A stretch of DNA of 64,000 nucleotides from Peronospora farinosa. Taxonomy: Eukaryota > Oomycota > Peronosporomycetes > Peronosporales > Peronosporaceae. Within the stretch, counting starts at the first letter, position 1. Each line of letters starts with the position of its first letter. This document shows positions 4,018 to 64,000 of the stretch, one piece after another. Under the pieces are notes generated by a model. The model was not told the DNA's origin and ran no database searches. It saw only the letters and a list, made by a program, of their open reading frames with translations. The stretch spans positions 248,001-312,000 of the forward strand of contig CANTFK010000993.1 in assembly GCA_947646735.1 (NCBI GenBank), in the 5' to 3' direction. Made by a program: the position numbers and the translations under genes.

Positions 4018-4881
4018 CAGGCAGATGACCAGGTGTGTTCTTTCGAGAGTGGGGAACTTTGGGCCGAGGACATAAGGCCAGGGTGGGCGGTCGTACCGGA
4101 AGTGGACCCCTCATCTGAAGGCATTGCTGTAGAAGATATACAGATTCCTGATCCAGATGGGAACACTCCCGAAGAGGTAGAGCGGTTGCGACAAATAATA
4201 TGGAAGAAACGACATCTGTTGATGGGCAAAGGTAACGCCTTACCCCCGGCCGCCCGAGGAGCGATATGCGATATCGATGTGGGGAACGCAAGACCGATCG
4301 CGCAACGCGTACGAAAGGTGGCCCCTCAATTCAGAGAGAAGCTAGCCGACCTGATCAAGGGACTGTTATCAGAAAAGATCATTCAGCCTTCCACCTCGCC
4401 ATGGGCCAGCCCAATTGTAATTATCGTGAAGAAGAATGGGGTCGATATTCGATTGTGTATCGACTATCGGTTAGTGAATGATCTCACCCAGCTCATGGTA
4501 CACCCGATGCCGTTGATTAACGAATTACTGGAAGACTTGGACGGAGCTTTATGGTACTGTTCTCTTGATATGGCGAGTGGTTTTTGGGTCGTCAGTATGA
4601 CCGAAAGGGCGAGACTAATCTCAGCTTTCGTTACTCCACTGGGATTATTTGAATGGCTTCGGATGCCTTTTGGGCTTAAGAATGCGCCTCAGATATATCA
4701 AAGGTTGTTGGATAATGCGTTATATGGATTCTTACGGATTTCGCCAGGGGCGGCCACAGAGGAAACAGAGGATTTGTTCGCAACAGGGAAACCCGATGCA
4801 AAATCGGGCCTCTCTGTATTGGGTCGACGATCATACATTGACGATATACTTGTTCCGGCCGAATCGTGGGACGTATTATGA
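4018..4881 (+). pseudogene. pol: gypsy A reverse transcriptase, fingers and palm
   Basis: RNA-dependent DNA polymerase segment. Conserved blocks are visible in order: SPWASPIVIIVKKNG, RLCIDYRLVN, YCSLDMASGFW, RMPFGLKNAPQIYQ, and the catalytic YIDDI at about 4837-4851. Between the PFGLKNAP block and YIDDI there is an extra stretch of about 35 residues beginning PGAATEETED; elements with a longer loop here are known in oomycetes. An in-frame TGA at 4879-4881 cuts the domain before the thumb, and the next segment continues in the same frame. There is no separate start codon, so this is one pol frame interrupted by stops. Confidence 0.92.
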
Positions 4882-10835: not shown

Positions 10836-10938
10836 AAAAACTTGATGTTTAAGCAAACAAGCCAACTAATGGCACATGCTTTTAAGATGGGCACTAATTG
10901 GAGCTGCATGTCAGGGATAGGTCAGGCTGTAAAAGTCG

Positions 10939-10996
10939 GTTTGGTTGGGTTTGGTTGGGTTTGGTTGGGTTTGGTCGGGTTTGGTCGGGTTTGGTC
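10939..10996 (+). repeat. 10-bp tandem repeat TTTGGTTGGG
   Basis: Nearly six copies of a 10-bp G/T-rich unit, the last two or three with C replacing one T. The G-runs could in principle stack as quadruplexes. It does not match the usual oomycete telomere repeat. Confidence 0.85.
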
Positions 10997-26544: not shown

Positions 26545-28097
26545 ATGCATCCGACCGAGCGTCCGAAACTAGCCGACCTTATGTCCCAGTCCTCGCTACC
26601 GATGGACAGAGAGCGACAACATCACTTTCGAAGCTCAACCGAAGCGTCATGTGGTGAGCTGGTGCGCCAGTACCTGACCGAGACGGACGAGCAAGAAGCA
26701 CTCGTCGTTCTGCGCGAGCATTTCTGGCACGACCAACGCATCACCTCGGACGATGTCCGCGTTGTCGTGCGTGCGGTCGCCAGCCACAAGGGCGCAATTA
26801 GCTTTCCACCCGACTTTCCGCCCACGCGCTGGATCCTTGCGTTCAAGCGCGCGCACGGCTTCGCACATGCCGACGATGTCTTCGCATTCGGGCTGCCCGA
26901 GCGGGCCCACGTGGGGAGTCGCACCCACAGCAGCGCCGTGCGTGCAACAAGTAGCATCCAGATGAGTGATGGTAGTAGCGATGACGAGAAAGGTGGGGGC
27001 AAACAGCCGTTGAGACGCTCCGCCGCTGCGCGTGAGTCTGAAACCTTGGCGCAGTGCAGCATGCGGACAATGTGCGACAGCGACCCGCAGATACAGCATA
27101 CTCGTCGACAGCAAAGCAGCAGCAGCACCGCTCCTTGGTTGTGGACAACTACCGTGCAGGACATGGTTCCAGGCATAAATGGAGCAACGAAGAGATCAGC
27201 TTCAACGCCAGCAGTGGTAGCGGCGACAGCGAGAATGACACGACGACTGGGACTAGCAGCAGCTCGAGTGTCAGTGCAGCACCTTCTACTGGTAGCGCGG
27301 ACAACAATAGAGATGGCGGTGTTTCCCCCCAATACTTTGATCCGACCTCCAGCGCGAAACGTGGCTACAAGCTGAGCCACACAGTGTCACCGGAGACATG
27401 GGATAGAGCAATCGCGGCTGTGGAACAGCAGGGGATGAGTCTGCGCGCCGCTGCCAGAACTTACGGTGTGCATTTTGCAGCTCTCCATCGCCGCGTGAAG
27501 AAGCGTGCGCAGGGAGGACATTCGTCCAAGGGCACCAATGGTTACTTTCATCAGAGCGATGAGGCCGGAATCATGCGCGTGGTGGTGGCCCGCGCGGAGC
27601 TGGGCGTGTTGATGACGTTCGATGAGCTTATGAAACTGGTCGAGGTGGCTGCGTTGCGCAAACTTCCGGACATCTCGGTGGCTAATGCGCGCGAGCTGAT
27701 GGTACGCTTTCAGTCACGCAATGAGCAGTCGGTTCGGCATATTATCGTGGACTGGCCGCCATCGGTGCCCACGACGTCATTGGGCCCAGTTGCCAGCCAC
27801 CATCATCTGGAGCACCCAGGCTATGATTACAGATCCAAGTCCTCACCGCCATCGACGAGCCGCAAATGCTCGCGGCATACTGTTGTGGGTGGCTCGGCAA
27901 CGGAAGTAACTGTGCCCGCGGCGCCTTTGCACCTTTTGCTGCCTTCCTCCTCCATTAACGGCAGCACCTCTTCCATCATCTCATCCGTCAATGGCAACCA
28001 ATCCATGCTGCCGAGTTTGAGTGTCGGCATGCAATATATGCGGCCCCTGCTCAGCAGCAGCAACAGCAATCTCAGCGCATATTCTGTAGCCGAATAG
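26545..28097 (+). pseudogene. Pipsqueak-type HTH gene, frameshifted inverted copy
   Basis: Plus-strand twin of the minus-strand gene ending at 26138. The first 190 codons agree. At about 27112 the Gln-codon repeat has one base fewer than the left copy, so the frame leaves the protein and stops at 27375. The remainder, including the HTH_psq domain, stays open in the other frame to 28097. Apart from this indel the copy is almost unchanged, so inactivation is recent or the base is a sequencing error in a CAG-rich tract. Confidence 0.88.
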
Positions 28098-34756: not shown

Positions 34757-36270
34757 TGCTACAGTCAGGAAGAACATTGTCGCCTGCTGCTGGATCATTT
34801 TGGTGGACGAAAGGTTACCCTTCCGTCGCACCTCAAAGCGAAATTAAATCGCTTTAGTTACAGTGATGGCCTACTATGGCATCTGCTGTCAACTTGTGAT
34901 CCCTTGAGAATCTATGTACAGATCTCGAGATGATGATACTTCACGAGTGCCATGATGCGCCATCTAGTGGGCATCTGGGCCGTGAAAAGACATTCTTACG
35001 AGTTTCAGAGGAATTTTGGTGGCCCCACCTATATCGGTGGGTGGCCAACTATATTCGCTCTTGTGAAGAGTGTCAGCGCATAAAGCCTGCACCTTCAAAC
35101 AGTGTGCCACTGAAGCCACTGCCGATTCCAACTGAATGTTGGAAGTCGGTCAGTTTGGACTTCATGTTTGGCTTACCGCCTGACCATAAAGGCAGGACGG
35201 GGCTCGTCGTCTTTGTAGACAGACTGAGCAAGATGGTGCATTTGGCACCATGTAGCACCAAGATCTCAGGAAAAGATGCTGCCCTCTTGTTCCTGGATCA
35301 CGTGTATCGACTACACGGGATGCCCGAGTCCATAGTATCGGACCGGGATCCGCGTTTTACGTCGGGTTTTTGGCGACATGTGTTCGAGATGCTGGGTAGC
35401 AAGCTCCACATGTCAACCGCTGATCATCCCCAGACCGATGGCCAAACAGAACGGGCCAATCGAGTCGTGGCGGATGTGTTGCGTACAATAGCGACTCCCA
35501 AAGAACGGACCAAGCAATTGCCATTCGTGGAGTTCGCTATTAATAATAGTGTTCACGCCAGTACGGGTGAAACACCGTTTTACATTAACGGACTGCGTCA
35601 TCCTCGAACGCCAGTCTCGTTTGTACGCAGCCCGAGTCTTAGTGGGGGAGGGCCCCTCACTTCGCTCGGTGCGAATGCCAAAGAGGGCCAAGGTTGCCCT
35701 AGTGACACTGCTAAGTTAGCAGTGGTCACGACACCTATAGATGTCACAAAGGAGGCACGGCAAGAAATGCCAGTGCTCCTTGATGATGACACTATAGTGT
35801 TGTCAACAGCGTCGACCCATGAACGACCTCTTGAAGGCGTCATCGGCGAGCTGGATGCTAAAAGCGTGAGCGACGCTCAGCGCTTTGTGGATGAGCGATT
35901 AGCCATCACACGTAAAGTCCGTGACGCGATGGCAAGCGCACAGGACAAGCAAAAACAATATGCAGAGCAGCATGGTCGCAAAAACAATGAACACTTTAGT
36001 GTGGGGGAAAAAGTGCTATTAAGTACTGCTACCCTACCTAAACATGCAATTTCTGTACTACCTGGTGGTACTACTAAGCTATTGCCCCGATTCATTGGGC
36101 CCTTTACAGTGGTTGAAGAAGTTGGAGATCTAAATTATAGGCTCACTCTCCCACCGTACATGAAGACGCACCCCGTATTTTACGTGGGTCGTCTGAAACG
36201 GTATGTTGATCCAGAAGAGATTCCATATCCACATCGGTCTAACGAGACCGATGGTCGACGTCGACTGTGA
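34757..36270 (+). pseudogene. pol: gypsy B integrase (core intact)
   Basis: The open frame 34930-36270 carries the HHCC region (HECHDAPSSGHLG ... CEECQRIKP) and the DDE core (SLDFMFGLPP, SDRDPRFTSGFW, TDGQTERANRVV). It also has a C-terminal GPF/Y module (FIGPFTVVEEVGDLNYRL) and ends in HPVFYVGRLKRYVDP. The 34757-34929 part continues the N-terminus through stops. All three catalytic acidic residues are visible. It is the best-preserved part of element B. Confidence 0.9.
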
Positions 36271-43277: not shown

Positions 43278-45284
43278 TTAATCGACTTCCTCAATCTTGG
43301 GGCCCTGGTCCGGCGCGCCAGCAGGGGGAGCGCCAGCACCGGGCATGCCACCAGGCATGCCGCCGGGCATACCACCAGGCATACCTGGCATTCCTCCGGG
43401 CATTCCACCAGCAGCGCCGGGAGCACCGCCAGCAGCAGCGTACATCTTCTGCAGAATCGGGTTGGCCACACCCTCGAGCTCCTTCTGCTTTCCTTCGTAC
43501 TCCTCCTTCTCCGATGACTGGTTTGCATCCAACCAGTTAATGGTCTCGGTCACCTTGTCCTCAATCGCCTTCTTGTCATCCTCCGAAATCTGGTCCTTCA
43601 ACTTCTCGTCGTTGAGCGTATTACGCAAATTGTAGGAGTAGTTCTCAAGAGCGTTCTTGGCCTCAATGCGCACCTTATTAGCCTCGTCCTCCGACTTGTA
43701 CTTCTCGGCTTCCGACACCATACGGTCAATATCAGCCTGCGACAAACGACCCTTGTCATTTGTGATCGTGATCTTGTTCTCCTTGCCCGTCGACTTCTCC
43801 ACAGCCGACACGTTCAAAATGCCATTCGCATCGATGTCGAAGGTTACGTCAATCTGAGGCACGCCACGAGGCATGGGCGGGATACCGTCCAAGTTAAACT
43901 TGCCCAGCAAATTGTTGTCGCGTGTCATGGACCGCTCGCCTTCAAACACCTGGATCAGAACACCCGGCTGGTTGTCCGCGTATGTCGAGAACGTTTGCGA
44001 CTTCTTGGTCGGTACAGTCGTGTTACGTGCAATCAGCGTCGTCATGACACCACCAGCCGTCTCTAGACCAAGCGACAAAGGCGTCACATCCAGCAAAAGC
44101 AGGTCCTGTAGCTTCTCCGATGAATCGTTGCCACTCAGAATGGCAGCCTGGACGGTAGCACCGTAGGCAACAGCCTCATCAGGGTTAATTGACTTGTTGG
44201 GCTCCTTGCCGTTAAAGAAGTCCGACAGCAGCTGCTGCACCTTGGGGATACGCGTCGACCCACCAACAAGTACCACCTCGTGCACCTGGCTCTTGGACAG
44301 CTTTGCGTCACGCAACACCTTCTCCACAGGCTCCATCGTCTTGCGGAAGTAGTCACCGCACATGTCTTCGAAACGCGCACGCGTGATGGTCGAGTTGAAA
44401 TCAATACCATCGAACAGAGAATCAATCTCAATGTACGCCTGTGCCGACGACGAGAGTGTACGCTTTGCGCGCTCACACGCTGTACGTAGACGACGGAGGG
44501 CACGCTGGTTCTCCGTAATGTCCTTGCGGTGCTTACGCTTGAACTCCTGGGTGAAGTGGTCTACCAGACGGTTGTCAAAGTCCTCACCACCCAAATGCGT
44601 GTCACCAGCTGTGGCTTTCACCTCAAAAATGCCCTCTTCAATGCTTAGTAGCGACACGTCAAAGGTACCGCCGCCAAGATCAAAGATCAGCACGTTACGT
44701 TCGCCGCCCTTCTTGTCCAGACCATAGGCAATAGCAGCAGCCGTCGGTTCGTTGATAATACGGAGCACATTAAGTCCAGCAATGGCACCGGCGTCCTTGG
44801 TGGCTTGACGCTGCGAGTCATTGAAATAGGCCGGTACCGTAATCACTGCATTCTTCACCTCCTTGCCGATGAAAGCTTCCGCCACCTCACGCATCTTAAT
44901 CAGGACCATGGACGAGATCTCCTCAGGCTGGAACGTCTTTGACTCGCCCTTGAATTGCACCGTAATCTGTGGCTTGTCACCGGCACCAGACGTGACTTTA
45001 AAAGGCCAGTGCTTCGTGTCAGCTAGAACGATCGGGTCCGAAAACTTGCGACCAATGAGGCGCTTGGCGTCGAACACCGTGTTGTGTGCGTTCATAGCCA
45101 CTTGGTTCTTAGCGGCATCACCAATAAGACGCTCCGTGTCCGTGAATGCCACGTAGGACGGCGTCGTACGGTTACCTTGGTCGTTAGCAATAATCTCTAC
45201 GCGGTCATTCTGCCACACACCGACGCACGAGTACGTCGTACCGAGATCAATGCCGACCGAGTATCCAGAGACAGTCTGAGCCAT
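43278..45284 (-). CDS. HSP70: Cytosolic Hsp70 chaperone
   Basis: 668 residues, uninterrupted, from ATG 45284. It is an ATP-driven chaperone that binds exposed hydrophobic peptides. The nucleotide-binding domain shows [16 protein letters not shown] at the start, then [29 protein letters not shown] and [13 protein letters not shown]. The substrate-binding domain includes [20 protein letters not shown], and a helical lid follows. The C-terminus has GGMPGG-type repeats and ends PKIEEVD, the EEVD signal of cytosolic/nuclear Hsp70 that docks TPR co-chaperones. Length is normal for the family. It lies convergent to the PCGF-like gene; heat-shock elements lie upstream. It is the likely source family of the two Hsp70 fragments near 24.1 and 28.5 kb. 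Confidence 0.98.
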
Positions 45285-46230: not shown

Positions 46231-47374
46231 GCCTTTAGTGTAGCGGAGCTGCACAGCTCTTGAATTTAATTAATTTCAGATTTTAAAAAATTTTTTTTTT
46301 AGCCAGAGGAAGCCTTTTAGACTGAAAGCCTCTTAGTTAAAGAACTAAATAGAGTTAAGGCTAAAAGCCACTACGTTCTAAGGAACTAATTTAATGACTT
46401 AGAGGTCACCCTGTTCTAAGGAAGTAGGAGAGAGTTTTAGTCAGCAAGCAATAAGCTTAAGGTTCAGAGAACCAACGCACAGAGTGCAAGAACAAGCTAG
46501 AGCTTAGAGGTTCAGAGAACCAACGCACAAAGTGCACAAGAGAACAAGTCAGAACGACTTGCGATCTTAAACTCAAAAGGAGAACTGATTTTATGTATGC
46601 TTTAAGATTTTATGAATAGTCCTACTCTAAGTACACTACACTAGATTAATTACTATAATAGTAATTATTATATGCAGACTTTGCTATTGGACGACGTATC
46701 GTCTAAACATCTGTGTATGATGTACTTAATACAGCGTTAGTGATTTTATCGAATCCCAATCGATAAGATACGGTATTACCGGATACCGTATCTTAACGCT
46801 CATACTTATTACCTCTAAAGAGAAGTATAATAATTCATTATATGCAATGGAAGAAAACTTCAACCGTAAACTTTCAGAATGACGTTACAACCGTCGTAAA
46901 ACCCCGTTACACAATGTAAGACCTTCTTCATAGCAGCGACGCGGTAAGCTCATCGTTGATGTTGGGATTAAACGATGCCGAACTTGCACCTACTTTGAGG
47001 ACATAAGTGCGAATTTATTTTTATGTGAGACCTGAAGCTGTCTTATGTCTTCAGTCTTAATCGTTGTCACGTAAGAGATGTCCCCGGTACAGACCTAGCG
47101 TCGAGAGTTGCAACACTCAAAGAGTCCGCACGCTTATTATTCGGGCTGATGTTGTCAATTTGGCGGTTCAAACACTCTACGACTTCACTTCTGAGCAAGC
47201 CCGAATGAGGCTGCTAGCAGACTCGTCTAATTATGTCAATGGGCTCAACCTTCTATTGGATTAGTACGCTAAATTATAATGTAATGTTCGCTAGTAATGG
47301 TGCTAGATGCAAAGAGGAAGTTAATAGCGCAGTGTAAATGGATCCTGGAATATATGTGTTAGCTCCTGGGGGAA
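46231..47374. other. AT-rich LTR-like region, no gene
   Basis: AT-rich sequence with repeated short blocks such as GTTCTAAGGAA (46374, 46411) and AGCC-TTTTAG variants, reminiscent of an LTR or leader. An open stretch at 47064-47264 (VRTLIIRADVVNLAVQTL) has no ATG start and no recognised domain. Clear LTR ends were not found. Confidence 0.35.
46459..46545 (+). repeat. Short direct repeat, two copies
   Basis: AGGTTCAGAGAACCAACGCA followed by CA(G/A)AGTGCA occurs at about 46460 and again at about 46507, 47 bp apart. GGTTC-AGA-GAACC inside each copy is a small hairpin. Confidence 0.8.
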
Positions 47375-50300
47375 ACCCATTACCTGTCTTGTCTCTCTTT
47401 CGCTCACGTCCTCTTAATCTGATTAATCCAGCCGAAGCATACCGAAGCGAAGAGAGCTTACAGGACATCCTAGGAATATTTTCGCAAGAAAAAGTTATCA
47501 ATTGAATTTAGTCAGCCTATCAGAAAGGAACAATGGCTTTACATCTTGGCCAAAGTATTGTCATATAAAATCAATCTTATTCGTTTGCAACCAGAAAATT
47601 TGTGTCTCTTCATTCGAGAATTGTCTGGCTCAATAAGATAATGGTAAAGCTGTTCTGCGTCATCGTTGGTATGAAGGGAAGTGCGTTTCCTGTGGACATT
47701 GATACGACTGAGAGTGTGGGGAGACCTAAAAGACGCAAGCAAGGCAAAGAAGGCGAACGCCTTGAAGAACGTTGGTGCGCGTAACCTGCAGCTCTTCCTT
47801 GCGAAAGGAACAGATGGCGAGTGTATCTCGTCTGGATTGGAAATCGTGAAGATGCTGAAGAAGGGTGAGAAAACTGCTTATATTAAGCTCTCACGGCGGA
47901 AGAAAATGAGCTGCAGGCAGAGAAATTCCTTGTGGACATTCTTGATGAAAATACCCATTACCTGTCTTGTCTCTCTTTCGCTCACGTCCTCTTAATCTGA
48001 TTATCCAGCCGAAGCATACCGAAGCGAAGAGAACTTACAGGACATCCTAGGAATATTTTCGCAAGAAAAAGTTATCAATTGAATTTAGTCAGCCTATCAG
48101 AAAGGAACAATGGCTTTACATCTTGGCCAAAGTATTGTCATATAAAATCAATCTTATTCGTTTGCAACCAGAAAATTTGTGTCTCTTCATTCGAGAATTG
48201 TCTGGCTCAATAAGATAATGGTAAAGCTGTTCTGCGTCATCGTTGGTATGAAGGAAAGTGCGTTTCCTGTGGACATTGATACGACTGAGAGTGTGGGGAG
48301 ACCTAAAAGACGCAAGCAAGGCAAAGAAGGCGAACGCCTTGAAGAACGTTGGTGCGCGTAACCTGCAGCTCTTCCTTGCGAAAGGAACAGATGGCGAGTG
48401 TATCTCGTCTGGATTGGAAATCGTGAAGATGCTGAAGAAGGGTGAGAAAACTGCTTATATTAAGCTCTCACGGCGGAAGAAAATGAGCTGCAGGCAGAGA
48501 AATTCCTTGTGGACATTCTTGATGAAAATACCCATTACCTGTCTTGTCTCTCTTTCGCTCACGTCCTCTTAATCTGATTATCCAGCCGAAGCATACCGAA
48601 GCGAAGAGAACTTACAGGACATCCTAGGAATATTTTCGCAAGAAAAAGTTATCAATTGAATTTAGTCAGCCTATCAGAAAGGAACAATGGCTTTACATCT
48701 TGGCCAAAGTATTGTCATATAAAATCAATCTTATTCGTTTGCAACCAGAAAATTTGTGTCTCTTCATTCGAGAATTGTCTGGCTCAATAAGATAATGGTA
48801 AAGCTGTTCTGCGTCATCGTTGGTATGAAGGAAAGTGCGTTTCCTGTGGACATTGATACGACTGAGAGTGTGGGGAGACCTAAAAGACGCAAGCAAGGCA
48901 AAGAAGGCGAACGCCTTGAAGAACGTTGGTGCGCGTAACCTGCAGCTCTTCCTTGCGAAAGGAACAGATGGCGAGTGTATCTCGTCTGGCTTGGAAATCG
49001 TGAAGATGCTGAAGAAGGGTGAGAAAACTGCTTATATTAAGCTCTCACGGCGGAAGAAAATGAGCTGCAGGCAGAGAAATTCCTTGTGGACATTCTTGAT
49101 GAAAATACCCATTACCTGTCTTGTCTCTCTTTCGCTCACGTCCTCTTAATCTGATTATCCAGCCGAAGCATACCGAAGCGAAGAGAACTTACAGGACATC
49201 CTAGGAATATTTTCGCAAGAAAAAGTTATCAATTGAATTTAGTCAGCCTATCAGAAAGGAACAATGGCTTTACATCTTGGCCAAAGTATTGTCATATAAA
49301 ATCAATCTTATTCGTTTGCAAACAGAAAATTCGTGTCTCTTCATTCGAGAATTGTCTGGCTCAATAAGATAATGGTAAAGCTGTTCTGCGTCATCGTTGG
49401 TATGAAGGAAAGTGCGTTTCCTGTGGACATTGATACGACTGAGAGTGTGGGGAGACCTAAAAGACGCAAGCAAGGCAAAGAAGGCGAACGCCTTGAAGAA
49501 CGTTGGTGCGCGTAACCTGCAGCTCTTCCTTGCGAAAGGAACAGATGGCGAGTGTATCTCGTCTGGCTTGGAAATCGTGAAGATGCTGAAGAAGGGTGAG
49601 AAAACTGCTTATATTAAGCTCTCACGGCGGAAGAAAATGAGCTGCAGGCAGAGAAATTCCTTGTGGACATTCTTGATGAAAATACCCATTACCTGTCTTG
49701 TCTCTCTTTCGCTCACGTCCTCTTAATCTGATTATCCAGCCGAAGCATACCGAAGCGAAGAGAACTTACAGGACATCCTAGGAATATTTTCGCAAGAAAA
49801 AGTTATCAATTGAATTTAGTCAGCCTATCAGAAAGGAACAATGGCTTTACATCTTGGCCAAAGTATTGTCATATAAAATCAATCTTATTCGTTTGCAAAC
49901 AGAAAATTCGTGTCTCTTCATTCGAGAATTGTCTGGCTCAATAAGATAATGGTAAAGCTGTTCTGCGTCATCGTTGGTATGAAGGAAAGTGCGTTTCCTG
50001 TGGACATTGATACGACTGAGAGTGTGGGGAGACCTAAAAGACGCAAGCAAGGCAAAGAAGGCGAACGCCTTGAAGAACGTTGGTGCGCGTAACCTGCAGC
50101 TCTTCCTTGCGAAAGGAACAGATGGCGAGTGTATCTCGTCTGGCTTGGAAATCGTGAAGATGCTGAAGAAGGGTGAGAAAACTGCTTATATTAAGCTCTC
50201 ACGGCGGAAGAAAATGAGCTGCAGGCAGAGAAATTCCTTGTGGACATTCTTGATGAAAATACCCATTACCTGTCTTGTCTCTCTTTCGCTCACGTCCTCT

Positions 50301-53300
50301 TAATCTGATTATCCAGCCGAAGCATACCGAAGCGAAGAGAACTTACAGGACATCCTAGGAATATTTTCGCAAGAAAAAGTTATCAATTGAATTTAGTCAG
50401 CCTATCAGAAAGGAACAATGGCTTTACATCTTGGCCAAAGTATTGTCATATAAAATCAATCTTATTCGTTTGCAAACAGAAAATTCGTGTCTCTTCATTC
50501 GAGAATTGTCTGGCTCAATAAGATAATGGTAAAGCTGTTCTGCGTCATCGTTGGTATGAAGGGAAGTGCGTTTCCTGTGGACATTGATACGACTGAGAGT
50601 GTGGGGAGACCTAAAAGACGCAAGCAAGGCAAAGAAGGCGAACGCCTTGAAGAACGTTGGTGCGCGTAACCTGCAGCTCTTCCTTGCGAAAGGAACAGAT
50701 GGCGAGTGTATCTCGTCTGGCTTGGCAATCGTGAAGATGCTGAAGAAGGGTGAGAAAACTGCTTATATTAAGCTCTCACGGCGGAAGAAAATGAGCTGCA
50801 GGCAGAGAAATTCCTTGTGGACATTCTTGATGAAAATACCCATTACCTGTCTTGTCTCTCTTTCGCTCACGTCCTCTTAATCTGATTATCCAGCCGAAGC
50901 ATACCGAAGCGAAGAGAACTTACAGGACATCCTAGGAATATTTTCGCAAGAAAAAGTTATCAATTGAATTTAGTCAGCCTATCAGAAAGGAACAATGGCT
51001 TTACATCTTGGCCAAAGTATTGTCATATAAAAACAATCTTATTCGTTTGCAAACAGAAAATTCGTGTCTCTTCATTCGAGAATTGTCTGGCTCAATAAGA
51101 TAATGGTAAAGCTGTTCTGCGTCATCGTTGGTATGAAGGAAAGTGCGTTTCCTGTGGACATTGATACGACTGAGAGTGTGGGGAGACCTAAAAGACGCAA
51201 GCAAGGCAAAGAAGGCGAACGCCTTGAAGAACGTTGGTGCGCGTAACCTGCAGCTCTTCCTTGCGAAAGGAACAGATGGCGAGTGTATCTCGTCTGGCTT
51301 GGCAATCGTGAAGATGCTGAAGAAGGGTGAGAAAACTGCTTATATTAAGCTCTCACGGCGGAAGAAAATGAGCTGCAGGCAGAGAAATTCCTTGTGGACA
51401 TTCTTGATGAAAATACCCATTACCTGTCTTGTCTCTCTTTCGCTCACGTCCTCTTAATCTGATTATCCAGCCGAAGCATACCGAAGCGAAGAGAACTTAC
51501 AGGACATCCTAGGAATATTTTCGCAAGAAAAAGTTATCAATTGAATTTAGTCAGCCTATCAGAAAGGAACAATGGCTTTACATCTTGGCCAAAGTATTGT
51601 CATATAAAAACAATCTTATTCGTTTGCAAACAGAAAATTCGTGTCTCTTCATTCGAGAATTGTCTGGCTCAATAAGATAATGGTAAAGCTGTTCTGCGTC
51701 ATCGTTGGTATGAAGGGAAGTGCGTTTCCTGTGGACATTGATACGACTGAGAGTGTGGGGAGACCTAAAAGACGCAAGCAAGGCAAAGAAGGCGAACGCC
51801 TTGAAGAACGTTGGTGCGCGTAACCTGCAGCTCTTCCTTGCGAAAGGAACAGATGGCGAGTGTATCTCGTCTGGCTTGGCAATCGTGAAGATGCTGAAGA
51901 AGGGTGAGAAAACTGCTTATATTAAGCTCTCACGGCGGAAGAAAATGAGCTGCAGGCAGAGAAATTCCTTGTGGACATTCTTGATGAAAATACCCATTAC
52001 CTGTCTTGTCTCTCTTTCGCTCACGTCCTCTTAATCTGATTATCCAGCCGAAGCATACCGAAGCGAAGAGAACTTACAGGACATCCTAGGAATATTTTCG
52101 CAAGAAAAAGTTATCAATTGAATTTAGTCAGCCTATCAGAAAGGAACAATGGCTTTACATCTTGGCCAAAGTATTGTCATATAAAAACAATCTTATTCGT
52201 TTGCAAACAGAAAATTTGTGTCTCTTCATTCGAGAATTGTCTGGCTCAATAAGATAATGGTAAAGCTGTTCTGCGTCATCGTTGGTATGAAGGGAAGTGC
52301 GTTTCCTGTGGACATTGATACGACTGAGAGTGTGGGGAGACCTAAAAGACGCAAGCAAGGCAAAGAAGGCGAACGCCTTGAAGAACGTTGGTGCGCGTAA
52401 CCTGCAGCTCTTCCTTGCGAAAGGAACAGATGGCGAGTGTATCTCGTCTGGCTTGGCAATCGTGAAGATGCTGAAGAAGGGTGAGAAAACTGCTTATATT
52501 AAGCTCTCACGGCGGAAGAAAATGAGCTGCAGGCAGAGAAATTCCTTGTGGACATTCTTGATGAAAATACCCATTACCTGTCTTGTCTCTCTTTCGCTCA
52601 CGTCCTCTTAATCTGATTATCCAGCCGAAGCATACCGAAGCGAAGAGAACTTACAGGACATCCTAGGAATATTTTCGCAAGAAAAAGTTATCAATTGAAT
52701 TTAGTCAGCCTATCAGAAAGGAACAATGGCTTTACATCTTGGCCAAAGTATTGTCATATAAAAACAATCTTATTCGTTTGCAAACAGAAAATTCGTGTCT
52801 CTTCATTCGAGAATTGTCTGGCTCAATAAGATAATGGTAAAGCTGTTCTGCGTCATCGTTGGTATGAAGGAAAGTGCGTTTCCTGTGGACATTGATACGA
52901 CTGAGAGTGTGGGGAGACCTAAAAGACGCAAGCAAGGCAAAGAAGGCGAACGCCTTGAAGAACGTTGGTGCGCGTAACCTGCAGCTCTTCCTTGCGAAAG
53001 GAACAGATGGCGAGTGTATCTCGTCTGGCTTGGAAATCGTGAAGATGCTGAAGAAGGGTGAGAAAACTGCTTATATTAAGCTCTCACGGCGGAAGAAAAT
53101 GAGCTGCAGGCAGAGAAATTCCTTGTGGACATTCTTGATGAAAATACCCATTACCTGTCTTGTCTCTCTTTCGCTCACGTCCTCTTAATCTGATTATCCA
53201 GCCGAAGCATACCGAAGCGAAGAGAACTTACAGGACATCCTAGGAATATTTTCGCAAGAAAAAGTTATCAATTGAATTTAGTCAGCCTATCAGAAAGGAA

Positions 53301-56300
53301 CAATGGCTTTACATCTTGGCCAAAGTATTGTCATATAAAAACAATCTTATTCGTTTGCAAACAGAAAATTCGTGTCTCTTCATTCGAGAATTGTCTGGCT
53401 CAATAAGATAATGGTAAAGCTGTTCTGCGTCATCGTTGGTATGAAGGGAAGTGCGTTTCCTGTGGACATTGATACGACTGAGAGTGTGGGGAGACCTAAA
53501 AGACGCAAGCAAGGCAAAGAAGGCGAACGCCTTGAAGAACGTTGGTGCGCGTAACCTGCAGCTCTTCCTTGCGAAAGGAACAGATGGCGAGTGTATCTCG
53601 TCTGGCTTGGCAATCGTGAAGATGCTGAAGAAGGGTGAGAAAACTGCTTATATTAAGCTCTCACGGCGGAAGAAAATGAGCTGCAGGCAGAGAAATTCCT
53701 TGTGGACATTCTTGATGAAAATACCCATTACCTGTCTTGTCTCTCTTTCGCTCACGTCCTCTTAATCTGATTATCCAGCCGAAGCATACCGAAGCGAAGA
53801 GAACTTACAGGACATCCTAGGAATATTTTCGCAAGAAAAAGTTATCAATTGAATTTAGTCAGCCTATCAGAAAGGAACAATGGCTTTACATCTTGGCCAA
53901 AGTATTGTCATATAAAAACAATCTTATTCGTTTGCAAACAGAAAATTTGTGTCTCTTCATTCGAGAATTGTCTGGCTCAATAAGATAATGGTAAAGCTGT
54001 TCTGCGTCATCGTTGGTATGAAGGGAAGTGCGTTTCCTGTGGACATTGATACGACTGAGAGTGTGGGGAGACCTAAAAGACGCAAGCAAGGCAAAGAAGG
54101 CGAACGCCTTGAAGAACGTTGGTGCGCGTAACCTGCAGCTCTTCCTTGCGAAAGGAACAGATGGCGAGTGTATCTCGTCTGGCTTGGCAATCGTGAAGAT
54201 GCTGAAGAAGGGTGAGAAAACTGCTTATATTAAGCTCTCACGGCGGAAGAAAATGAGCTGCAGGCAGAGAAATTCCTTGTGGACATTCTTGATGAAAATA
54301 CCCATTACCTGTCTTGTCTCTCTTTCGCTCACGTCCTCTTAATCTGATTATCCAGCCGAAGCATACCGAAGCGAAGAGAACTTACAGGACATCCTAGGAA
54401 TATTTTCGCAAGAAAAAGTTATCAATTGAATTTAGTCAGCCTATCAGAAAGGAACAATGGCTTTACATCTTGGCCAAAGTATTGTCATATAAAAACAATC
54501 TTATTCGTTTGCAAACAGAAAATTCGTGTCTCTTCATTCGAGAATTGTCTGGCTCAATAAGATAATGGTAAAGCTGTTCTGCGTCATCGTTGGTATGAAG
54601 GGAAGTGCGTTTCCTGTGGACATTGATACGACTGAGAGTGTGGGGAGACCTAAAAGACGCAAGCAAGGCAAAGAAGGCGAACGCCTTGAAGAACGTTGGT
54701 GCGCGTAACCTGCAGCTCTTCCTTGCGAAAGGAACAGATGGCGAGTGTATCTCGTCTGGATTGGAAATCGTGAAGATGCTGAAGAAGGGTGAGAAAACTG
54801 CTTATATTAAGCTCTCACGGCGGAAGAAAATGAGCTGCAGGCAGAGAAATTCCTTGTGGACATTCTTGATGAAAATACCCATTACCTGTCTTGTCTCTCT
54901 TTCGCTCACGTCCTCTTAATCTGATTATCCAGCCGAAGCATACCGAAGCGAAGAGAACTTACAGGACATCCTAGGAATATTTTCGCAAGAAAAAGTTATC
55001 AATTGAATTTAGTCAGCCTATCAGAAAGGAACAATGGCTTTACATCTTGGCCAAAGTATTGTCATATAAAATCAATCTTATTCGTTTGCAACCAGAAAAT
55101 TTGTGTCTCTTCATTCGAGAATTGTCTGGCTCAATAAGATAATGGTAAAGCTGTTCTGCGTCATCGTTGGTATGAAGGGAAGTGCGTTTCCTGTGGACAT
55201 TGATACGACTGAGAGTGTGGGGAGACCTAAAAGACGCAAGCAAGGCAAAGAAGGCGAACGCCTTGAAGAACGTTGGTGCGCGTAACCTGCAGCTCTTCCT
55301 TGCGAAAGGAACAGATGGCGAGTGTATCTCGTCTGGCTTGGCAATCGTGAAGATGCTGAAGAAGGGTGAGAAAACTGCTTATATTAAGCTCTCACGGCGG
55401 AAGAAAATGAGCTGCAGGCAGAGAAATTCCTTGTGGACATTCTTGATGAAAATACCCATTACCTGTCTTGTCTCTCTTTCGCTCACGTCCTCTTAATCTG
55501 ATTATCCAGCCGAAGCATACCGAAGCGAAGAGAACTTACAGGACATCCTAGGAATATTTTCGCAAGAAAAAGTTATCAATTGAATTTAGTCAGCCTATCA
55601 GAAAGGAACAATGGCTTTACATCTTGGCCAAAGTATTGTCATATAAAAACAATCTTATTCGTTTGCAACCAGAAAATTCGTGTCTCTTCATTCGAGAATT
55701 GTCTGGCTCAATAAGATAATGGTAAAGCTGTTCTGCGTCATCGTTGGTATGAAGGGAAGTGCGTTTCCTGTGGACATTGATACGACTGAGAGTGTGGGGA
55801 GACCTAAAAGACGCAAGCAAGGCAAAGAAGGCGAACGCCTTGAAGAACGTTGGTGCGCGTAACCTGCAGCTCTTCCTTGCGAAAGGAACAGATGGCGAGT
55901 GTATCTCGTCTGGCTTGGCAATCGTGAAGATGCTGAAGAAGGGTGAGAAAACTGCTTATATTAAGCTCTCACGGCGGAAGAAAATGAGCTGCAGGCAGAG
56001 AAATTCCTTGTGGACATTCTTGATGAAAATACCCATTACCTGTCTTGTCTCTCTTTCGCTCACGTCCTCTTAATCTGATTATCCAGCCGAAGCATACCGA
56101 AGCGAAGAGAACTTACAGGACATCCTAGGAATATTTTCGCAAGAAAAAGTTATCAATTGAATTTAGTCAGCCTATCAGAAAGGAACAATGGCTTTACATC
56201 TTGGCCAAAGTATTGTCATATAAAAACAATCTTATTCGTTTGCAACCAGAAAATTTGTGTCTCTTCATTCGAGAATTGTCTGGCTCAATAAGATAATGGT

Positions 56301-59300
56301 AAAGCTGTTCTGCGTCATCGTTGGTATGAAGGGAAGTGCGTTTCCTGTGGACATTGATACGACTGAGAGTGTGGGGAGACCTAAAAGACGCAAGCAAGGC
56401 AAAGAAGGCGAACGCCTTGAAGAACGTTGGTGCGCGTAACCTGCAGCTCTTCCTTGCGAAAGGAACAGATGGCGAGTGTATCTCGTCTGGATTGGCAATC
56501 GTGAAGATGCTGAAGAAGGGTGAGAAAACTGCTTATATTAAGCTCTCACGGCGGAAGAAAATGAGCTGCAGGCAGAGAAATTCCTTGTGGACATTCTTGA
56601 TGAAAATACCCATTACCTGTCTTGTCTCTCTTTCGCTCACGTCCTCTTAATCTGATTATCCAGCCGAAGCATACCGAAGCGAAGAGAACTTACAGGACAT
56701 CCTAGGAATATTTTCGCAAGAAAAAGTTATCAATTGAATTTAGTCAGCCTATCAGAAAGGAACAATGGCTTTACATCTTGGCCAAAGTATTGTCATATAA
56801 AAACAATCTTATTCGTTTGCAAACAGAAAATTCGTGTCTCTTCATTCGAGAATTGTCTGGCTCAATAAGATAATGGTAAAGCTGTTCTGCGTCATCGTTG
56901 GTATGAAGGAAAGTGCGTTTCCTGTGGACATTGATACGACTGAGAGTGTGGGGAGACCTAAAAGACGCAAGCAAGGCAAAGAAGGCGAACGCCTTGAAGA
57001 ACGTTGGTGCGCGTAACCTGCAGCTCTTCCTTGCGAAAGGAACAGATGGCGAGTGTCTCTCGTCTGGCTTGGCAATCGTGAAGATGCTGAAGAAGGGTGA
57101 GAAAACTGCTTATATTAAGCTCTCACGGCGGAAGAAAATGAGCTGCAGGCAGAGAAATTCCTTGTGGACATTCTTGATGAAAATACCCATTACCTGTCTT
57201 GTCTCTCTTTCGCTCACGTCCTCTTAATCTGATTATCCAGCCGAAGCATACCGAAGCGAAGAGAACTTACAGGACATCCTAGGAATATTTTCGCAAGAAA
57301 AAGTTATCAATTGAATTTAGTCAGCCTATCAGAAAGGAACAATGGCTTTACATCTTGGCCAAAGTATTGTCATATAAAAACAATCTTATTCGTTTGCAAC
57401 CAGAAAATTTGTGTCTCTTCATTCGAGAATTGTCTGGCTCAATAAGATAATGGTAAAGCTGTTCTGCGTCATCGTTGGTATGAAGGGAAGTGCGTTTCCT
57501 GTGGACATTGATACGACTGAGAGTGTGGGGAGACCTAAAAGACGCAAGCAAGGCAAAGAAGGCGAACGCCTTGAAGAACGTTGGTGCGCGTAACCTGCAG
57601 CTCTTCCTTGCGAAAGGAACAGATGGCGAGTGTATCTCGTCTGGCTTGGAAATCGTGAAGATGCTGAAGAAGGGTGAGAAAACTGCTTATATTAAGCTCT
57701 CACGGCGGAAGAAAATGAGCTGCAGGCAGAGAAATTCCTTGTGGACATTCTTGATGAAAATACCCATTACCTGTCTTGTCTCTCTTTCGCTCACGTCCTC
57801 TTAATCTGATTATCCAGCCGAAGCATACCGAAGCGAAGAGAACTTACAGGACATCCTAGGAATATTTTCGCAAGAAAAAGTTATCAATTGAATTTAGTCA
57901 GCCTATCAGAAAGGAACAATGGCTTTACATCTTGGCCAAAGTATTGTCATATAAAAACAATCTTATTCGTTTGCAACCAGAAAATTTGTGTCTCTTCATT
58001 CGAGAATTGTCTGGCTCAATAAGATAATGGTAAAGCTGTTCTGCGTCATCGTTGGTATGAAGGAAAGTGCGTTTCCTGTGGACATTGATACGACTGAGAG
58101 TGTGGGGAGACCTAAAAGACGCAAGCAAGGCAAAGAAGGCGAACGCCTTGAAGAACGTTGGTGCGCGTAACCTGCAGCTCTTCCTTGCGAAAGGAACAGA
58201 TGGCGAGTGTATCTCGTCTGGCTTGGCAATCGTGAAGATGCTGAAGAAGGGTGAGAAAACTGCTTATATTAAGCTCTCACGGCGGAAGAAAATGAGCTGC
58301 AGGCAGAGAAATTCCTTGTGGACATTCTTGATGAAAATACCCATTACCTGTCTTGTCTCTCTTTCGCTCACGTCCTCTTAATCTGATTATCCAGCCGAAG
58401 CATACCGAAGCGAAGAGAACTTACAGGACATCCTAGGAATATTTTCGCAAGAAAAAGTTATCAATTGAATTTAGTCAGCCTATCAGAAAGGAACAATGGC
58501 TTTACATCTTGGCCAAAGTATTGTCATATAAAAACAATCTTATTCGTTTGCAAACAGAAAATTCGTGTCTCTTCATTCGAGAATTGTCTGGCTCAATAAG
58601 ATAATGGTAAAGCTGTTCTGCGTCATCGTTGGTATGAAGGAAAGTGCGTTTCCTGTGGACATTGATACGACTGAGAGTGTGGGGAGACCTAAAAGACGCA
58701 AGCAAGGCAAAGAAGGCGAACGCCTTGAAGAACGTTGGTGCGCGTAACCTGCAGCTCTTCCTTGCGAAAGGAACAGATGGCGAGTGTATCTCGTCTGGAT
58801 TGGAAATCGTGAAGATGCTGAAGAAGGGTGAGAAAACTGCTTATATTAAGCTCTCACGGCGGAAGAAAATGAGCTGCAGGCAGAGAAATTCCTTGTGGAC
58901 ATTCTTGATGAAAATACCCATTACCTGTCTTGTCTCTCTTTCGCTCACGTCCTCTTAATCTGATTATCCAGCCGAAGCATACCGAAGCGAAGAGAACTTA
59001 CAGGACATCCTAGGAATATTTTCGCAAGAAAAAGTTATCAATTGAATTTAGTCAGCCTATCAGAAAGGAACAATGGCTTTACATCTTGGCCAAAGTATTG
59101 TCATATAAAAACAATCTTATTCGTTTGCAAACAGAAAATTCGTGTCTCTTCATTCGAGAATTGTCTGGCTCAATAAGATAATGGTAAAGCTGTTCTGCGT
59201 CATCGTTGGTATGAAGGAAAGTGCGTTTCCTGTGGACATTGATACGACTGAGAGTGTGGGGAGACCTAAAAGACGCAAGCAAGGCAAAGAAGGCGAACGC

Positions 59301-62300
59301 CTTGAAGAACGTTGGTGCGCGTAACCTGCAGCTCTTCCTTGCGAAAGGAACAGATGGCGAGTGTATCTCGTCTGGCTTGGCAATCGTGAAGATGCTGAAG
59401 AAGGGTGAGAAAACTGCTTATATTAAGCTCTCACGGCGGAAGAAAATGAGCTGCAGGCAGAGAAATTCCTTGTGGACATTCTTGATGAAAATACCCATTA
59501 CCTGTCTTGTCTCTCTTTCGCTCACGTCCTCTTAATCTGATTATCCAGCCGAAGCATACCGAAGCGAAGAGAACTTACAGGACATCCTAGGAATATTTTC
59601 GCAAGAAAAAGTTATCAATTGAATTTAGTCAGCCTATCAGAAAGGAACAATGGCTTTACATCTTGGCCAAAGTATTGTCATATAAAAACAATCTTATTCG
59701 TTTGCAAACAGAAAATTCGTGTCTCTTCATTCGAGAATTGTCTGGCTCAATAAGATAATGGTAAAGCTGTTCTGCGTCATCGTTGGTATGAAGGAAAGTG
59801 CGTTTCCTGTGGACATTGATACGACTGAGAGTGTGGGGAGACCTAAAAGACGCAAGCAAGGCAAAGAAGGCGAACGCCTTGAAGAACGTTGGTGCGCGTA
59901 ACCTGCAGCTCTTCCTTGCGAAAGGAACAGATGGCGAGTGTATCTCGTCTGGCTTGGAAATCGTGAAGATGCTGAAGAAGGGTGAGAAAACTGCTTATAT
60001 TAAGCTCTCACGGCGGAAGAAAATGAGCTGCAGGCAGAGAAATTCCTTGTGGACATTCTTGATGAAAATACCCATTACCTGTCTTGTCTCTCTTTCGCTC
60101 ACGTCCTCTTAATCTGATTATCCAGCCGAAGCATACCGAAGCGAAGAGAACTTACAGGACATCCTAGGAATATTTTCGCAAGAAAAAGTTATCAATTGAA
60201 TTTAGTCAGCCTATCAGAAAGGAACAATGGCTTTACATCTTGGCCAAAGTATTGTCATATAAAAACAATCTTATTCGTTTGCAAACAGAAAATTCGTGTC
60301 TCTTCATTCGAGAATTGTCTGGCTCAATAAGATAATGGTAAAGCTGTTCTGCGTCATCGTTGGTATGAAGGGAAGTGCGTTTCCTGTGGACATTGATACG
60401 ACTGAGAGTGTGGGGAGACCTAAAAGACGCAAGCAAGGCAAAGAAGGCGAACGCCTTGAAGAACGTTGGTGCGCGTAACCTGCAGCTCTTCCTTGCGAAA
60501 GGAACAGATGGCGAGTGTATCTCGTCTGGCTTGGCAATCGTGAAGATGCTGAAGAAGGGTGAGAAAACTGCTTATATTAAGCTCTCACGGCGGAAGAAAA
60601 TGAGCTGCAGGCAGAGAAATTCCTTGTGGACATTCTTGATGAAAATACCCATTACCTGTCTTGTCTCTCTTTCGCTCACGTCCTCTTAATCTGATTATCC
60701 AGCCGAAGCATACCGAAGCGAAGAGAACTTACAGGACATCCTAGGAATATTTTCGCAAGAAAAAGTTATCAATTGAATTTAGTCAGCCTATCAGAAAGGA
60801 ACAATGGCTTTACATCTTGGCCAAAGTATTGTCATATAAAAACAATCTTATTCGTTTGCAAACAGAAAATTTGTGTCTCTTCATTCGAGAATTGTCTGGC
60901 TCAATAAGATAATGGTAAAGCTGTTCTGCGTCATCGTTGGTATGAAGGAAAGTGCGTTTCCTGTGGACATTGATACGACTGAGAGTGTGGGGAGACCTAA
61001 AAGACGCAAGCAAGGCAAAGAAGGCGAACGCCTTGAAGAACGTTGGTGCGCGTAACCTGCAGCTCTTCCTTGCGAAAGGAACAGATGGCGAGTGTATCTC
61101 GTCTGGCTTGGCAATCGTGAAGATGCTGAAGAAGGGTGAGAAAACTGCTTATATTAAGCTCTCACGGCGGAAGAAAATGAGCTGCAGGCAGAGAAATTCC
61201 TTGTGGACATTCTTGATGAAAATACCCATTACCTGTCTTGTCTCTCTTTCGCTCACGTCCTCTTAATCTGATTATCCAGCCGAAGCATACCGAAGCGAAG
61301 AGAACTTACAGGACATCCTAGGAATATTTTCGCAAGAAAAAGTTATCAATTGAATTTAGTCAGCCTATCAGAAAGGAACAATGGCTTTACATCTTGGCCA
61401 AAGTATTGTCATATAAAAACAATCTTATTCGTTTGCAAACAGAAAATTCGTGTCTCTTCATTCGAGAATTGTCTGGCTCAATAAGATAATGGTAAAGCTG
61501 TTCTGCGTCATCGTTGGTATGAAGGAAAGTGCGTTTCCTGTGGACATTGATACGACTGAGAGTGTGGGGAGACCTAAAAGACGCAAGCAAGGCAAAGAAG
61601 GCGAACGCCTTGAAGAACGTTGGTGCGCGTAACCTGCAGCTCTTCCTTGCGAAAGGAACAGATGGCGAGTGTATCTCGTCTGGCTTGGCAATCGTGAAGA
61701 TGCTGAAGAAGGGTGAGAAAACTGCTTATATTAAGCTCTCACGGCGGAAGAAAATGAGCTGCAGGCAGAGAAATTCCTTGTGGACATTCTTGATGAAAAT
61801 ACCCATTACCTGTCTTGTCTCTCTTTCGCTCACGTCCTCTTAATCTGATTAATCCAGCCGAAGCATACCGAAGCGAAGAGAACTTACAGGACATCCTAGG
61901 AATATTTTCGCAAGAAAAAGTTATCAATTGAATTTAGTCAGCCTATCAGAAAGGAACAATGGCTTTACATCTTGGCCAAAGTATTGTCATATAAAAACAA
62001 TCTTATTCGTTTGCAAACAGAAAATTCGTGTCTCTTCATTCGAGAATTGTCTGGCTCAATAAGATAATGGTAAAGCTGTTCTGCGTCATCGTTGGTATGA
62101 AGGAAAGTGCGTTTCCTGTGGACATTGATACGACTGAGAGTGTGGGGAGACCTAAAAGACGCAAGCAAGGCAAAGAAGGCGAACGCCTTGAAGAACGTTG
62201 GTGCGCGTAACCTGCAGCTCTTCCTTGCGAAAGGAACAGATGGCGAGTGTATCTCGTCTGGCTTGGCAATCGTGAAGATGCTGAAGAAGGGTGAGAAAAC

Positions 62301-64000
62301 TGCTTATATTAAGCTCTCACGGCGGAAGAAAATGAGCTGCAGGCAGAGAAATTCCTTGTGGACATTCTTGATGAAAATACCCATTACCTGTCTTGTCTCT
62401 CTTTCGCTCACGTCCTCTTAATCTGATTAATCCAGCCGAAGCATACCGAAGCGAAGAGAACTTACAGGACATCCTAGGAATATTTTCGCAAGAAAAAGTT
62501 ATCAATTGAATTTAGTCAGCCTATCAGAAAGGAACAATGGCTTTACATCTTGGCCAAAGTATTGTCATATAAAAACAATCTTATTCGTTTGCAAACAGAA
62601 AATTCGTGTCTCTTCATTCGAGAATTGTCTGGCTCAATAAGATAATGGTAAAGCTGTTCTGCGTCATCGTTGGTATGAAGGAAAGTGCGTTTCCTGTGGA
62701 CATTGATACGACTGAGAGTGTGGGGAGACCTAAAAGACGCAAGCAAGGCAAAGAAGGCGAACGCCTTGAAGAACGTTGGTGCGCGTAACCTGCAGCTCTT
62801 CCTTGCGAAAGGAACAGATGGCGAGTGTATCTCGTCTGGCTTGGCAATCGTGAAGATGCTGAAGAAGGGTGAGAAAACTGCTTATATTAAGCTCTCACGG
62901 CGGAAGAAAATGAGCTGCAGGCAGAGAAATTCCTTGTGGACATTCTTGATGAAAATACCCATTACCTGTCTTGTCTCTCTTTCGCTCACGTCCTCTTAAT
63001 CTGATTAATCCAGCCGAAGCATACCGAAGCGAAGAGAACTTACAGGACATCCTAGGAATATTTTCGCAAGAAAAAGTTATCAATTGAATTTAGTCAGCCT
63101 ATCAGAAAGGAACAATGGCTTTACATCTTGGCCAAAGTATTGTCATATAAAAACAATCTTATTCGTTTGCAAACAGAAAATTCGTGTCTCTTCATTCGAG
63201 AATTGTCTGGCTCAATAAGATAATGGTAAAGCTGTTCTGCGTCATCGTTGGTATGAAGGGAAGTGCGTTTCCTGTGGACATTGATACGACTGAGAGTGTG
63301 GGGAGACCTAAAAGACGCAAGCAAGGCAAAGAAGGCGAACGCCTTGAAGAACGTTGGTGCGCGTAACCTGCAGCTCTTCCTTGCGAAAGGAACAGATGGC
63401 GAGTGTATCTCGTCTGGCTTGGAAATCGTGAAGATGCTGAAGAAGGGTGAGAAAACTGCTTATATTAAGCTCTCACGGCGGAAGAAAATGAGCTGCAGGC
63501 AGAGAAATTCCTTGTGGACATTCTTGATGAAAATACCCATTACCTGTCTTGTCTCTCTTTCGCTCACGTCCTCTTAATCTGATTATCCAGCCGAAGCATA
63601 CCGAAGCGAAGAGAACTTACAGGACATCCTAGGAATATTTTCGCAAGAAAAAGTTATCAATTGAATTTAGTCAGCCTATCAGAAAGGAACAATGGCTTTA
63701 CATCTTGGCCAAAGTATTGTCATATAAAAACAATCTTATTCGTTTGCAAACAGAAAATTCGTGTCTCTTCATTCGAGAATTGTCTGGCTCAATAAGATAA
63801 TGGTAAAGCTGTTCTGCGTCATCGTTGGTATGAAGGGAAGTGCGTTTCCTGTGGACATTGATACGACTGAGAGTGTGGGGAGACCTAAAAGACGCAAGCA
63901 AGGCAAAGAAGGCGAACGCCTTGAAGAACGTTGGTGCGCGTAACCTGCAGCTCTTCCTTGCGAAAGGAACAGATGGCGAGTGTATCTCGTCTGGATTGGA
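47375..64000 (+). repeat. 577-578 bp tandem satellite of CRN-fragment units, about 28.8 copies
   Basis: A head-to-tail array starting at ACCCATTACC (47375) and continuing to the window end. The CRN-like ATG recurs every 577 bp from 47641 to 61489 (25 copies), then at 62067, 62645, 63223 and 63800. The 578-bp spacing comes from one extra A (TGATTAATCC for TGATTATCC), also present before copy 1. Copies differ at only a few sites: GGGAAG/GGAAAG at codon 12 of the CRN frame, GAAATC/GCAATC, GATTGG/GCTTGG, AATTTG/AATTCG, CAACC/CAAAC and AATCAA/AACAA. About 220 bp per unit is not CRN-coding and includes sequence directly upstream of the CRN ATG. Confidence 0.98.
47641..48000 (+). pseudogene. CRN (Crinkler) effector N-terminal domain fragment, first of 29
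   Basis: From ATG 47641 (MVKLFCVIVG) the unit encodes the start of a CRN-family protein, oomycete effectors that enter host cells and act in the nucleus. The LFLAK hallmark appears as NLQLFLAKGTDGE near 47787-47825, in a different frame from the start, followed by GLEIVKMLKKGEKTAYIK. The reading changes frame near 47720, at a run of four G, and again near 47886, returning to the first frame and ending at TGA 47998-48000. There is no C-terminal effector domain. All 29 units, with ATGs at 47641 + 577n up to 61489 and then 62067, 62645, 63223 and 63800 (last one cut by the window end), carry the same two breaks. None should make a working effector as written. Confidence 0.85.

What the first reader, a model, noticed from the sequence alone, without database searches (positions are those of the whole stretch)
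47375..64000. A Crinkler effector fragment has become a satellite array
Seen: 29 head-to-tail units of 577-578 bp, each holding a CRN N-terminal (LFLAK) domain plus about 220 bp of other sequence, extending past the window. Known: CRN genes are multicopy and recombine at the LFLAK/C-terminal junction, but I know of no satellite made of the LFLAK domain. Inference: unequal crossing-over or rolling-circle amplification fixed a dead 5' effector cassette. The array could act as a donor for recombination, a source of transcripts or small RNAs against CRN genes, or plain satellite.
Basis: partly seen in the sequence, partly recalled or inferred. Interest (0 to 1): 0.88.

Follow-up and report, generated by a model that had tools for sequence, protein, structure and literature searches.

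The report
Dead Crinkler gene turned satellite array
In an oomycete-like genome, the front end of a broken Crinkler effector gene, with its upstream region, was copied head-to-tail 64 times where it stood, and a second Crinkler gene shows much the same, so dead effector genes can give birth to satellite-like DNA.

Summary
Confirmed and extended. The array is real: 64 head-to-tail units of 577-578 bp, from window 47375 to C273:332342 (20.3 kb beyond the window), both borders inside one contig. Both halves of the unit's coding part match Pfam Crinkler PF20147 above its cut-off, in different reading frames. The 'other sequence' is the gene's own 5' flank; its last 132 bp are shared with other CRN loci. 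The array begins and ends at the same unit phase with 4-bp microhomology, and just past its 3' border lies the rest of the same CRN pseudogene, colinear with unamplified paralogues. So it most likely arose in place, by tandem duplication of one CRN 5' segment, then grew and was homogenised by exchange between units; the six most divergent units are the three at each end. All 64 units share the same broken frame. A second CRN array (846-bp unit, at least 35 copies) lies at C177/C224; its 3' border is in place too, its 5' border is unsupported. No sign of recent donor use in nine loci checked; a small-RNA role is untested. New variant of a known kind.

The parts
47375..64000 (+). 577/578-bp CRN-derived tandem array (28 complete units and a 29th cut by the window; continues to window-frame 84342 = C273:332342, 64 units in all)
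47375..47378 (.). 5' border; the 4 bases ACCC stand at the 5' border, at the internal joint shown, and at the 3' border (4-bp microhomology)
47285..47454 (+). stretch across the 5' border that is colinear with C53 (unamplified), with one 9-base gap at the border; alignment score 171 against a maximum of 28 in 100 shuffles
47953..48529 (+). unit 2, a complete unit
47953..48217 (+). upstream part of unit 2, -265 to -1 from the CRN ATG; the last 132 bp are shared with other CRN loci
48186..48193 (+). initiator-like TTCATTCG at -32, aligned with the same sequence in C239, C131 and the open CRN of C104
   Evidence: PMC3599244 gives TCATTCT as the most frequent INR form (passages), so the match is partial
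48218..48358 (+). first half of the CRN N-terminal domain, open for 47 codons from the ATG, PF20147 positions 1-31
48252..48530 (+). second half of the CRN N-terminal domain incl. LFLAK, in another frame, PF20147 positions 26-75 (the stretch searched reaches one base into unit 3)
46375..46917 (+). left-flank stretch, 92% identical to two places on C177 (57971-58518 and 74796-75343): a dispersed repeat

Best explanation
A single CRN pseudogene on C273 suffered a tandem duplication of the segment from -265 to +312 around its start codon, at 4-bp microhomology (shown by border phase and flanks). Unequal crossing-over and short-tract conversion then raised it to 64 copies and keep the units about 99.5% alike (shown by variant mosaics and by divergent end units; the process itself is inferred). 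The remainder of the same pseudogene is still attached at the 3' border. The array codes for no CRN protein. It is most likely a by-product of the fast birth-and-death turnover of CRN genes; each unit carries a copy of the CRN upstream region, so transcripts and small RNAs from it are plausible but only inferred. A like process happened to another CRN gene in the same genome (846-bp unit).
For: Same phase and ACCC at both borders and at the joint. The sequence 3' of the array continues the CRN gene, colinear with C131 (last unit 5235-5667, flank 5669-6227) and with the four C239 copies, 80-82% identical, with an HVLIKLP motif 21 bp past the border. The 5' border is colinear with C53. 64 of 64 units have the same first stop, after 47 codons, while the PF20147 matches of C239 (4 of 4) and C131 (1 of 1) are without stops. 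14 variable columns of 578; 33 of 55 informative pairs show all four combinations; mean differences rise from 1.59 between neighbours to 7.50 at lag 60. The six most divergent units of 64 are units 1, 2, 3, 62, 63, 64. Second array: 3' border colinear with the single-copy CRN locus of C189 across and past the border; 34 probe matches, all on C177 and C224.
Against: Copy number rests on the assembly: 31 distinct units of 64, and a run of 13 identical neighbours. The 5' border is supported only by C53, which has a 9-base gap exactly there and no Crinkler match nearby among the 150 scored; the CRN paralogues C131 and C239 do not match upstream of -132. C131 and C239 are themselves broken further downstream, so no intact close relative of this gene was examined. 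In the 846-bp array the borders differ by about 25 bp of phase (159 against 133), its ends lie on two contigs, and its 5' flank on C224 shows no match to the C189 locus. An excised circle, amplified and returned by homologous recombination to its source, would look the same as in-place duplication.
Confidence: 0.85

Rival explanations
1. The array is a working small-RNA source: tandem copies with CRN upstream regions are transcribed, processed, and silence CRN genes in trans. (Compatible with the origin given above; the odds are for the function.)
For: In P. [quoted passage not shown] Satellite small RNAs are reported in P. parasitica (PMC7290008, passages). Each unit keeps the upstream region and an initiator-like site.
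Against: No RNA data could be examined. In the same P. infestans paper satellite repeats gave under 1% of small-RNA reads, mostly 24-30 nt. The longest exact match of one unit to other fetched loci is 32 bp (C239), 19-22 bp to seven, and 12 bp at most to C189, so trans-silencing would need tolerance of mismatches. All units point the same way, so double-stranded RNA would need antisense transcription or an RNA-dependent polymerase (inference).
Confidence: 0.2
2. Recombination donor: the array supplies upstream region and N-terminal domain to new CRN genes.
For: The 3' border lies 21 bp before HVLIKLP, and HVLVVVP is described as the recombination breakpoint of CRNs (PMC3726527, passages).
Against: No recent exchange seen: longest exact match 32 bp, one unit against 9 fetched loci (54 Crinkler matches outside arrays are known, so most were not compared this way). 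All 64 units have a broken frame. In the second array the border lies well past the corresponding motif (motif phase 749, border phase 133 of the next turn).
Confidence: 0.04
3. Circle-based amplification: the segment left as a circle, was amplified by rolling circle, and returned by homologous recombination to its own locus; or a Helitron was involved.
For: Gives the same border phases as in-place duplication (inference). [quoted passage not shown] infestans.
Against: Needs more steps; the 38-base probe finds no unit copies elsewhere. Tandem duplication with microhomology suffices. Helitron ends were not searched.
Confidence: 0.08
4. Assembly artefact: one or few units inflated by the assembler.
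For: Runs of identical units exist (13 in a row).
Against: 31 distinct units, variant gradients with divergent ends, and unique sequence on both sides in one contig.
Confidence: 0.04

Closest known systems
CRN (Crinkler) effector genes and pseudogenes of oomycetes (PMC3726527, passages)
   Same: PF20147 N-terminal domain, HVLxxxP-type junction, many pseudogenes, tandem and segmental duplication
   Different: Here only the 5' segment, not the gene, is the repeat unit, and it is repeated 64 times
PpSat1/PpSat2 of Phytophthora parasitica (PMC7290008, passages) and AeSat families of Aphanomyces euteiches (PMC8780586, passages)
   Same: Tandem arrays of similar units in oomycetes; small RNAs reported for PpSat
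   Different: The passages seen name no effector origin; the A. euteiches survey kept only monomers of 100-500 bp with more than 100 occurrences, so units of 577 and 846 bp would have been left out
Satellites seeded by rDNA spacers or transposons (PMC5615363, passages)
   Same: A pre-existing sequence becomes the monomer
   Different: Here the seed is an effector pseudogene and the source gene is still joined to the array
Tandem arrays of Avr1a/Avr3a in Phytophthora sojae (PMC2661136, listing and start of abstract only)
   Same: Effector copy number changes with tandem duplication
   Different: There the abstract start speaks of four near-identical tandem copies at Avr1a; here the unit is a dead gene fragment

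Membership tests
Crinkler (CRN) effector genes | N-terminal LFLAK/Crinkler domain (PF20147) | tested here: met
   both halves above the cut-off, in two frames; the family rings in 0 of 14 control genomes
Crinkler (CRN) effector genes | one open frame through the domain to a C-terminal domain | tested here: not met
   64 of 64 units stop after 47 codons; the remainder past the 3' border is split among frames. It is a pseudogene fragment, not a CRN gene
Crinkler (CRN) effector genes | HVLxxxP motif at the junction | tested here: met
   HVLIKLP, 21 bp past the array's end, in the attached remainder (not in the unit)
Crinkler (CRN) effector genes | secretion or translocation into a host | not testable with these tools
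   no functional data; no signal-peptide predictor on hand
Satellite DNA | long head-to-tail array of near-identical units | tested here: met
   64 units, about 37 kb, mean identity 99.5%
Satellite DNA | concerted evolution (units exchange variants) | tested here: met
   33 of 55 column pairs with all four combinations; end units most divergent
Satellite DNA | high copy number, several loci (more than 100 occurrences was the cut-off used in PMC8780586) | tested here: not met
   64 copies at one locus; better called a satellite-like single-locus array
Satellite DNA | heterochromatic state | not testable with these tools
   no chromatin data
CRN tandem gene cluster | each repeat holds a complete gene | tested here: not met
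   the unit ends at +312 of the gene
Rolling-circle or Helitron capture | copies placed at sites unrelated to the source gene | tested here: not met
   the 3' flank is the source gene's own. Helitron ends were not searched

The most novel reading that the evidence does not exclude
CRN genes are recurrent seeds of satellite DNA: their 5' ends (upstream region plus N-terminal domain) have become arrays at least twice in one genome, and such arrays act as standing small-RNA loci that tune the CRN effector repertoire.
Probability: 0.15. Interest if true: 0.85.

Novelty: new variant of a known kind. Interest (0 to 1): 0.62.

Why it matters
It catches the birth of a satellite-like array with its parent gene still attached, and shows a second case in the same effector family. 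It adds a possible fate to the birth-and-death model of CRN genes and gives a clear test of whether effector-derived arrays feed the CRN-directed small RNAs reported in Phytophthora. It also shows that satellite surveys limited to monomers under 500 bp would overlook such arrays.

Tried and rejected
Non-coding RNA or rDNA-type origin: not supported, 0 Rfam matches at gathering score and 0 tRNAs in the window. A coding tandem-repeat protein: rejected for the window part, no ORF of 150 aa or more. Unit spread elsewhere: not seen, 64 of 64 probe matches on C273 at up to 2 mismatches. A shared breakpoint rule for both arrays: the 5' breaks lie at about -265 and -256 from the ATG, but the 3' breaks lie on different sides of the HVL-type motif, so I claim no common 3' hotspot. 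Complete oomycete initiator: the 8-letter pattern that I recalled (YTCANTYY; it was not found in PMC3599244) is not fully met in the unit; its first 7 letters are, and not even those in the 846-bp unit. The P-loop-like fragment in the 3' flank reached no Pfam cut-off. The host species was not identified: 'oomycete' is inferred from 54 Crinkler-domain matches outside the arrays; Crinklers are also named in an arbuscular mycorrhizal fungus (PMC6131194, listing), so this is not proof.

Literature: (open-licence PMC papers only) listed no paper whose title, abstract start or passages that I read describe a CRN- or effector-derived satellite. Two of these lists were cut well short: 20 of 219 papers shown, 12 of 40; one search showed 17 of 18. 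I read passages, not whole papers, of PMC8780586, PMC3804510, PMC11139960, PMC7290008, PMC3599244, PMC3726527, PMC5615363 and PMC9430622; PMC12692304 gave no passage. The others are known from listings only.

Full report
Observation. The tandem array is real. In 200-base steps, best identity near lag 577 is 0.305-0.355 left of the border and 0.97-1.0 in most steps right of it. BLAST of one unit against the contig gives head-to-tail copies from 47375 to window-frame 84342, that is C273:295375-332342. Cut at the border phase there are 64 units, each 577 or 578 bp; 28 of them lie complete in the window. A 38-base probe finds 64 copies in the 46.85-Mb genome, all on C273, and none for the reversed control. 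Tandem Repeats Finder did not list the array; its period limit was 500.

What the unit is. The unit holds -265 to +312 of a CRN gene, counted from its start codon. The first 47 codons match PF20147 positions 1-31 (31.3 bits), and a stretch in another frame matches positions 26-75 (24.7 bits; cut-off 24.6). So the domain is broken between its halves. All 64 units have the same first stop, after 47 codons. The part upstream of the ATG is the gene's own flank: from -132 onward it aligns with C239, C131 and a number of other loci; the aligned upstream regions share an initiator-like TTCATTCG with C239, C131 and the open CRN of C104. INR and FPR elements are described for Phytophthora infestans (PMC3599244, passages); the match here is partial, so promoter activity is inference.

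How it arose. The array starts and ends at the same unit phase. The four bases ACCC stand at the 5' border, at the internal joint, and at the 3' border. The sequence past the 3' border is the rest of the same gene: the last unit aligns with C131:5235-5667 and the flank with C131:5669-6227, and the four C239 copies behave alike. An HVLIKLP motif begins 21 bp past the border, and a P-loop-like fragment follows (no Pfam cut-off reached). The 5' border is colinear with a piece of C53, with a 9-base gap at the border and a score of 171 against a maximum of 28 in 100 shuffles; C131 and C239 do not match there. This is the anatomy of a tandem duplication in place, joined at microhomology. A circle that returned to its source by homologous recombination would look the same and stays possible.

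How it evolved since. There are 14 variable columns, mean pairwise identity is 99.5%, and 152 of 2016 pairs are identical. Variants form mosaics: 33 of 55 informative column pairs show all four combinations. Differences grow with distance, from 1.59 between neighbours to 7.50 at lag 60. The six units with the highest mean difference to all others are 1, 2, 3, 62, 63 and 64 (5.2-6.5 against a median of 2.63). That is what unequal exchange and short conversion tracts are expected to leave. 31 of the 64 units are distinct, and one run of 13 neighbours is identical, so the exact count rests on the assembly.

A second case. The PF20147 search of the genome scored 150 of 224 candidates and rang in 0 of 14 control genomes. 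By my hand count the 150 are 54 matches outside arrays, 62 in the C273 array, 32 on C177 at 846-bp steps and 2 on C224. The C177 array (115642 to the contig end at 143170) and the start of C224 (1-2102) carry the same 846-bp unit, 98-100% identical. A 37-base probe gives 34 matches, 31 on C177 and 3 on C224, and by its spacing misses one C177 unit, so at least 35 copies. The unit comes from a different CRN gene: about 70% identical to the first over -132 to +66, spanning roughly -256 to +565. The CRN locus on C189, which has a 616-codon ORF with a PF20147 match, is colinear with the terminal unit and continues past the 3' border. So this too looks like an in-place amplification, on the 3' side. 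On the 5' side support is lacking: the C224 flank has no match to the C189 locus, and the border phases differ by about 25 bp. Over 33 complete units mean identity is 99.45%, 19 are distinct, 21 of 66 column pairs show all four combinations, and end units are again among the most divergent.

What it does. The best reading is a by-product: a dead effector gene caught in a family with fast turnover, with no coding product. A donor role is not supported: the longest exact match between one unit and nine other fetched loci is 32 bp, although most of the 54 outside matches were not compared this way. A small-RNA role is open. In P. [quoted passage not shown] PpSat satellites of P. parasitica are reported to be transcribed mainly as small RNAs (PMC7290008, passages). 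No RNA data were on hand here.

Known and new. CRN duplication, recombination at HVLVVVP and abundant pseudogenes are known (PMC3726527, passages). Satellites from rDNA spacers or transposons are known (PMC5615363, passages). Eight literature searches listed no effector-derived satellite, in open-licence papers only and with some lists cut short. The A. euteiches survey kept monomers of 100-500 bp (PMC8780586, passages), which would exclude both units. I file it as a new variant of a known kind: a gene-fragment array whose seed is an effector pseudogene, caught with its parent gene attached, with a second case in the same genome.

Noticed in passing
C177:115642-143170 and C224:1-2102 (L013-L015, L025, L026): Second CRN-derived array, unit 846 bp, at least 35 copies; the two contigs probably join across it.
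   Followed up: yes
C239:1-40000 (L016-L019): About 10.43-kb tandem segment with four Crinkler matches at 999, 11429, 21856 and 32287.
   Followed up: partly
C263 (196775, 211781, 226773) and C78 (636, 15833, 31426): Crinkler-domain matches at about 15-kb steps, suggesting further segmental tandem repeats; sequences not fetched.
   Followed up: no
window 43278-45284 (-): Hsp70 ORF, 668 codons, near-complete Pfam match, 2.1 kb from the array.
   Followed up: no
window 24585-26138 (-) and 27054-28097 (+): Two ORFs with HTH_psq domains in a G+C-rich stretch, perhaps transposon-derived.
   Followed up: no
window 2965-6534 and 34930-36270; L011:3678-4271: Retrotransposon pieces (protease, RNase H, integrase; gag right of the array) on both sides.
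   Followed up: no
window 8479-8727 and 10938-10995: Short tandem repeats with 20-bp and 10-bp units.
   Followed up: no
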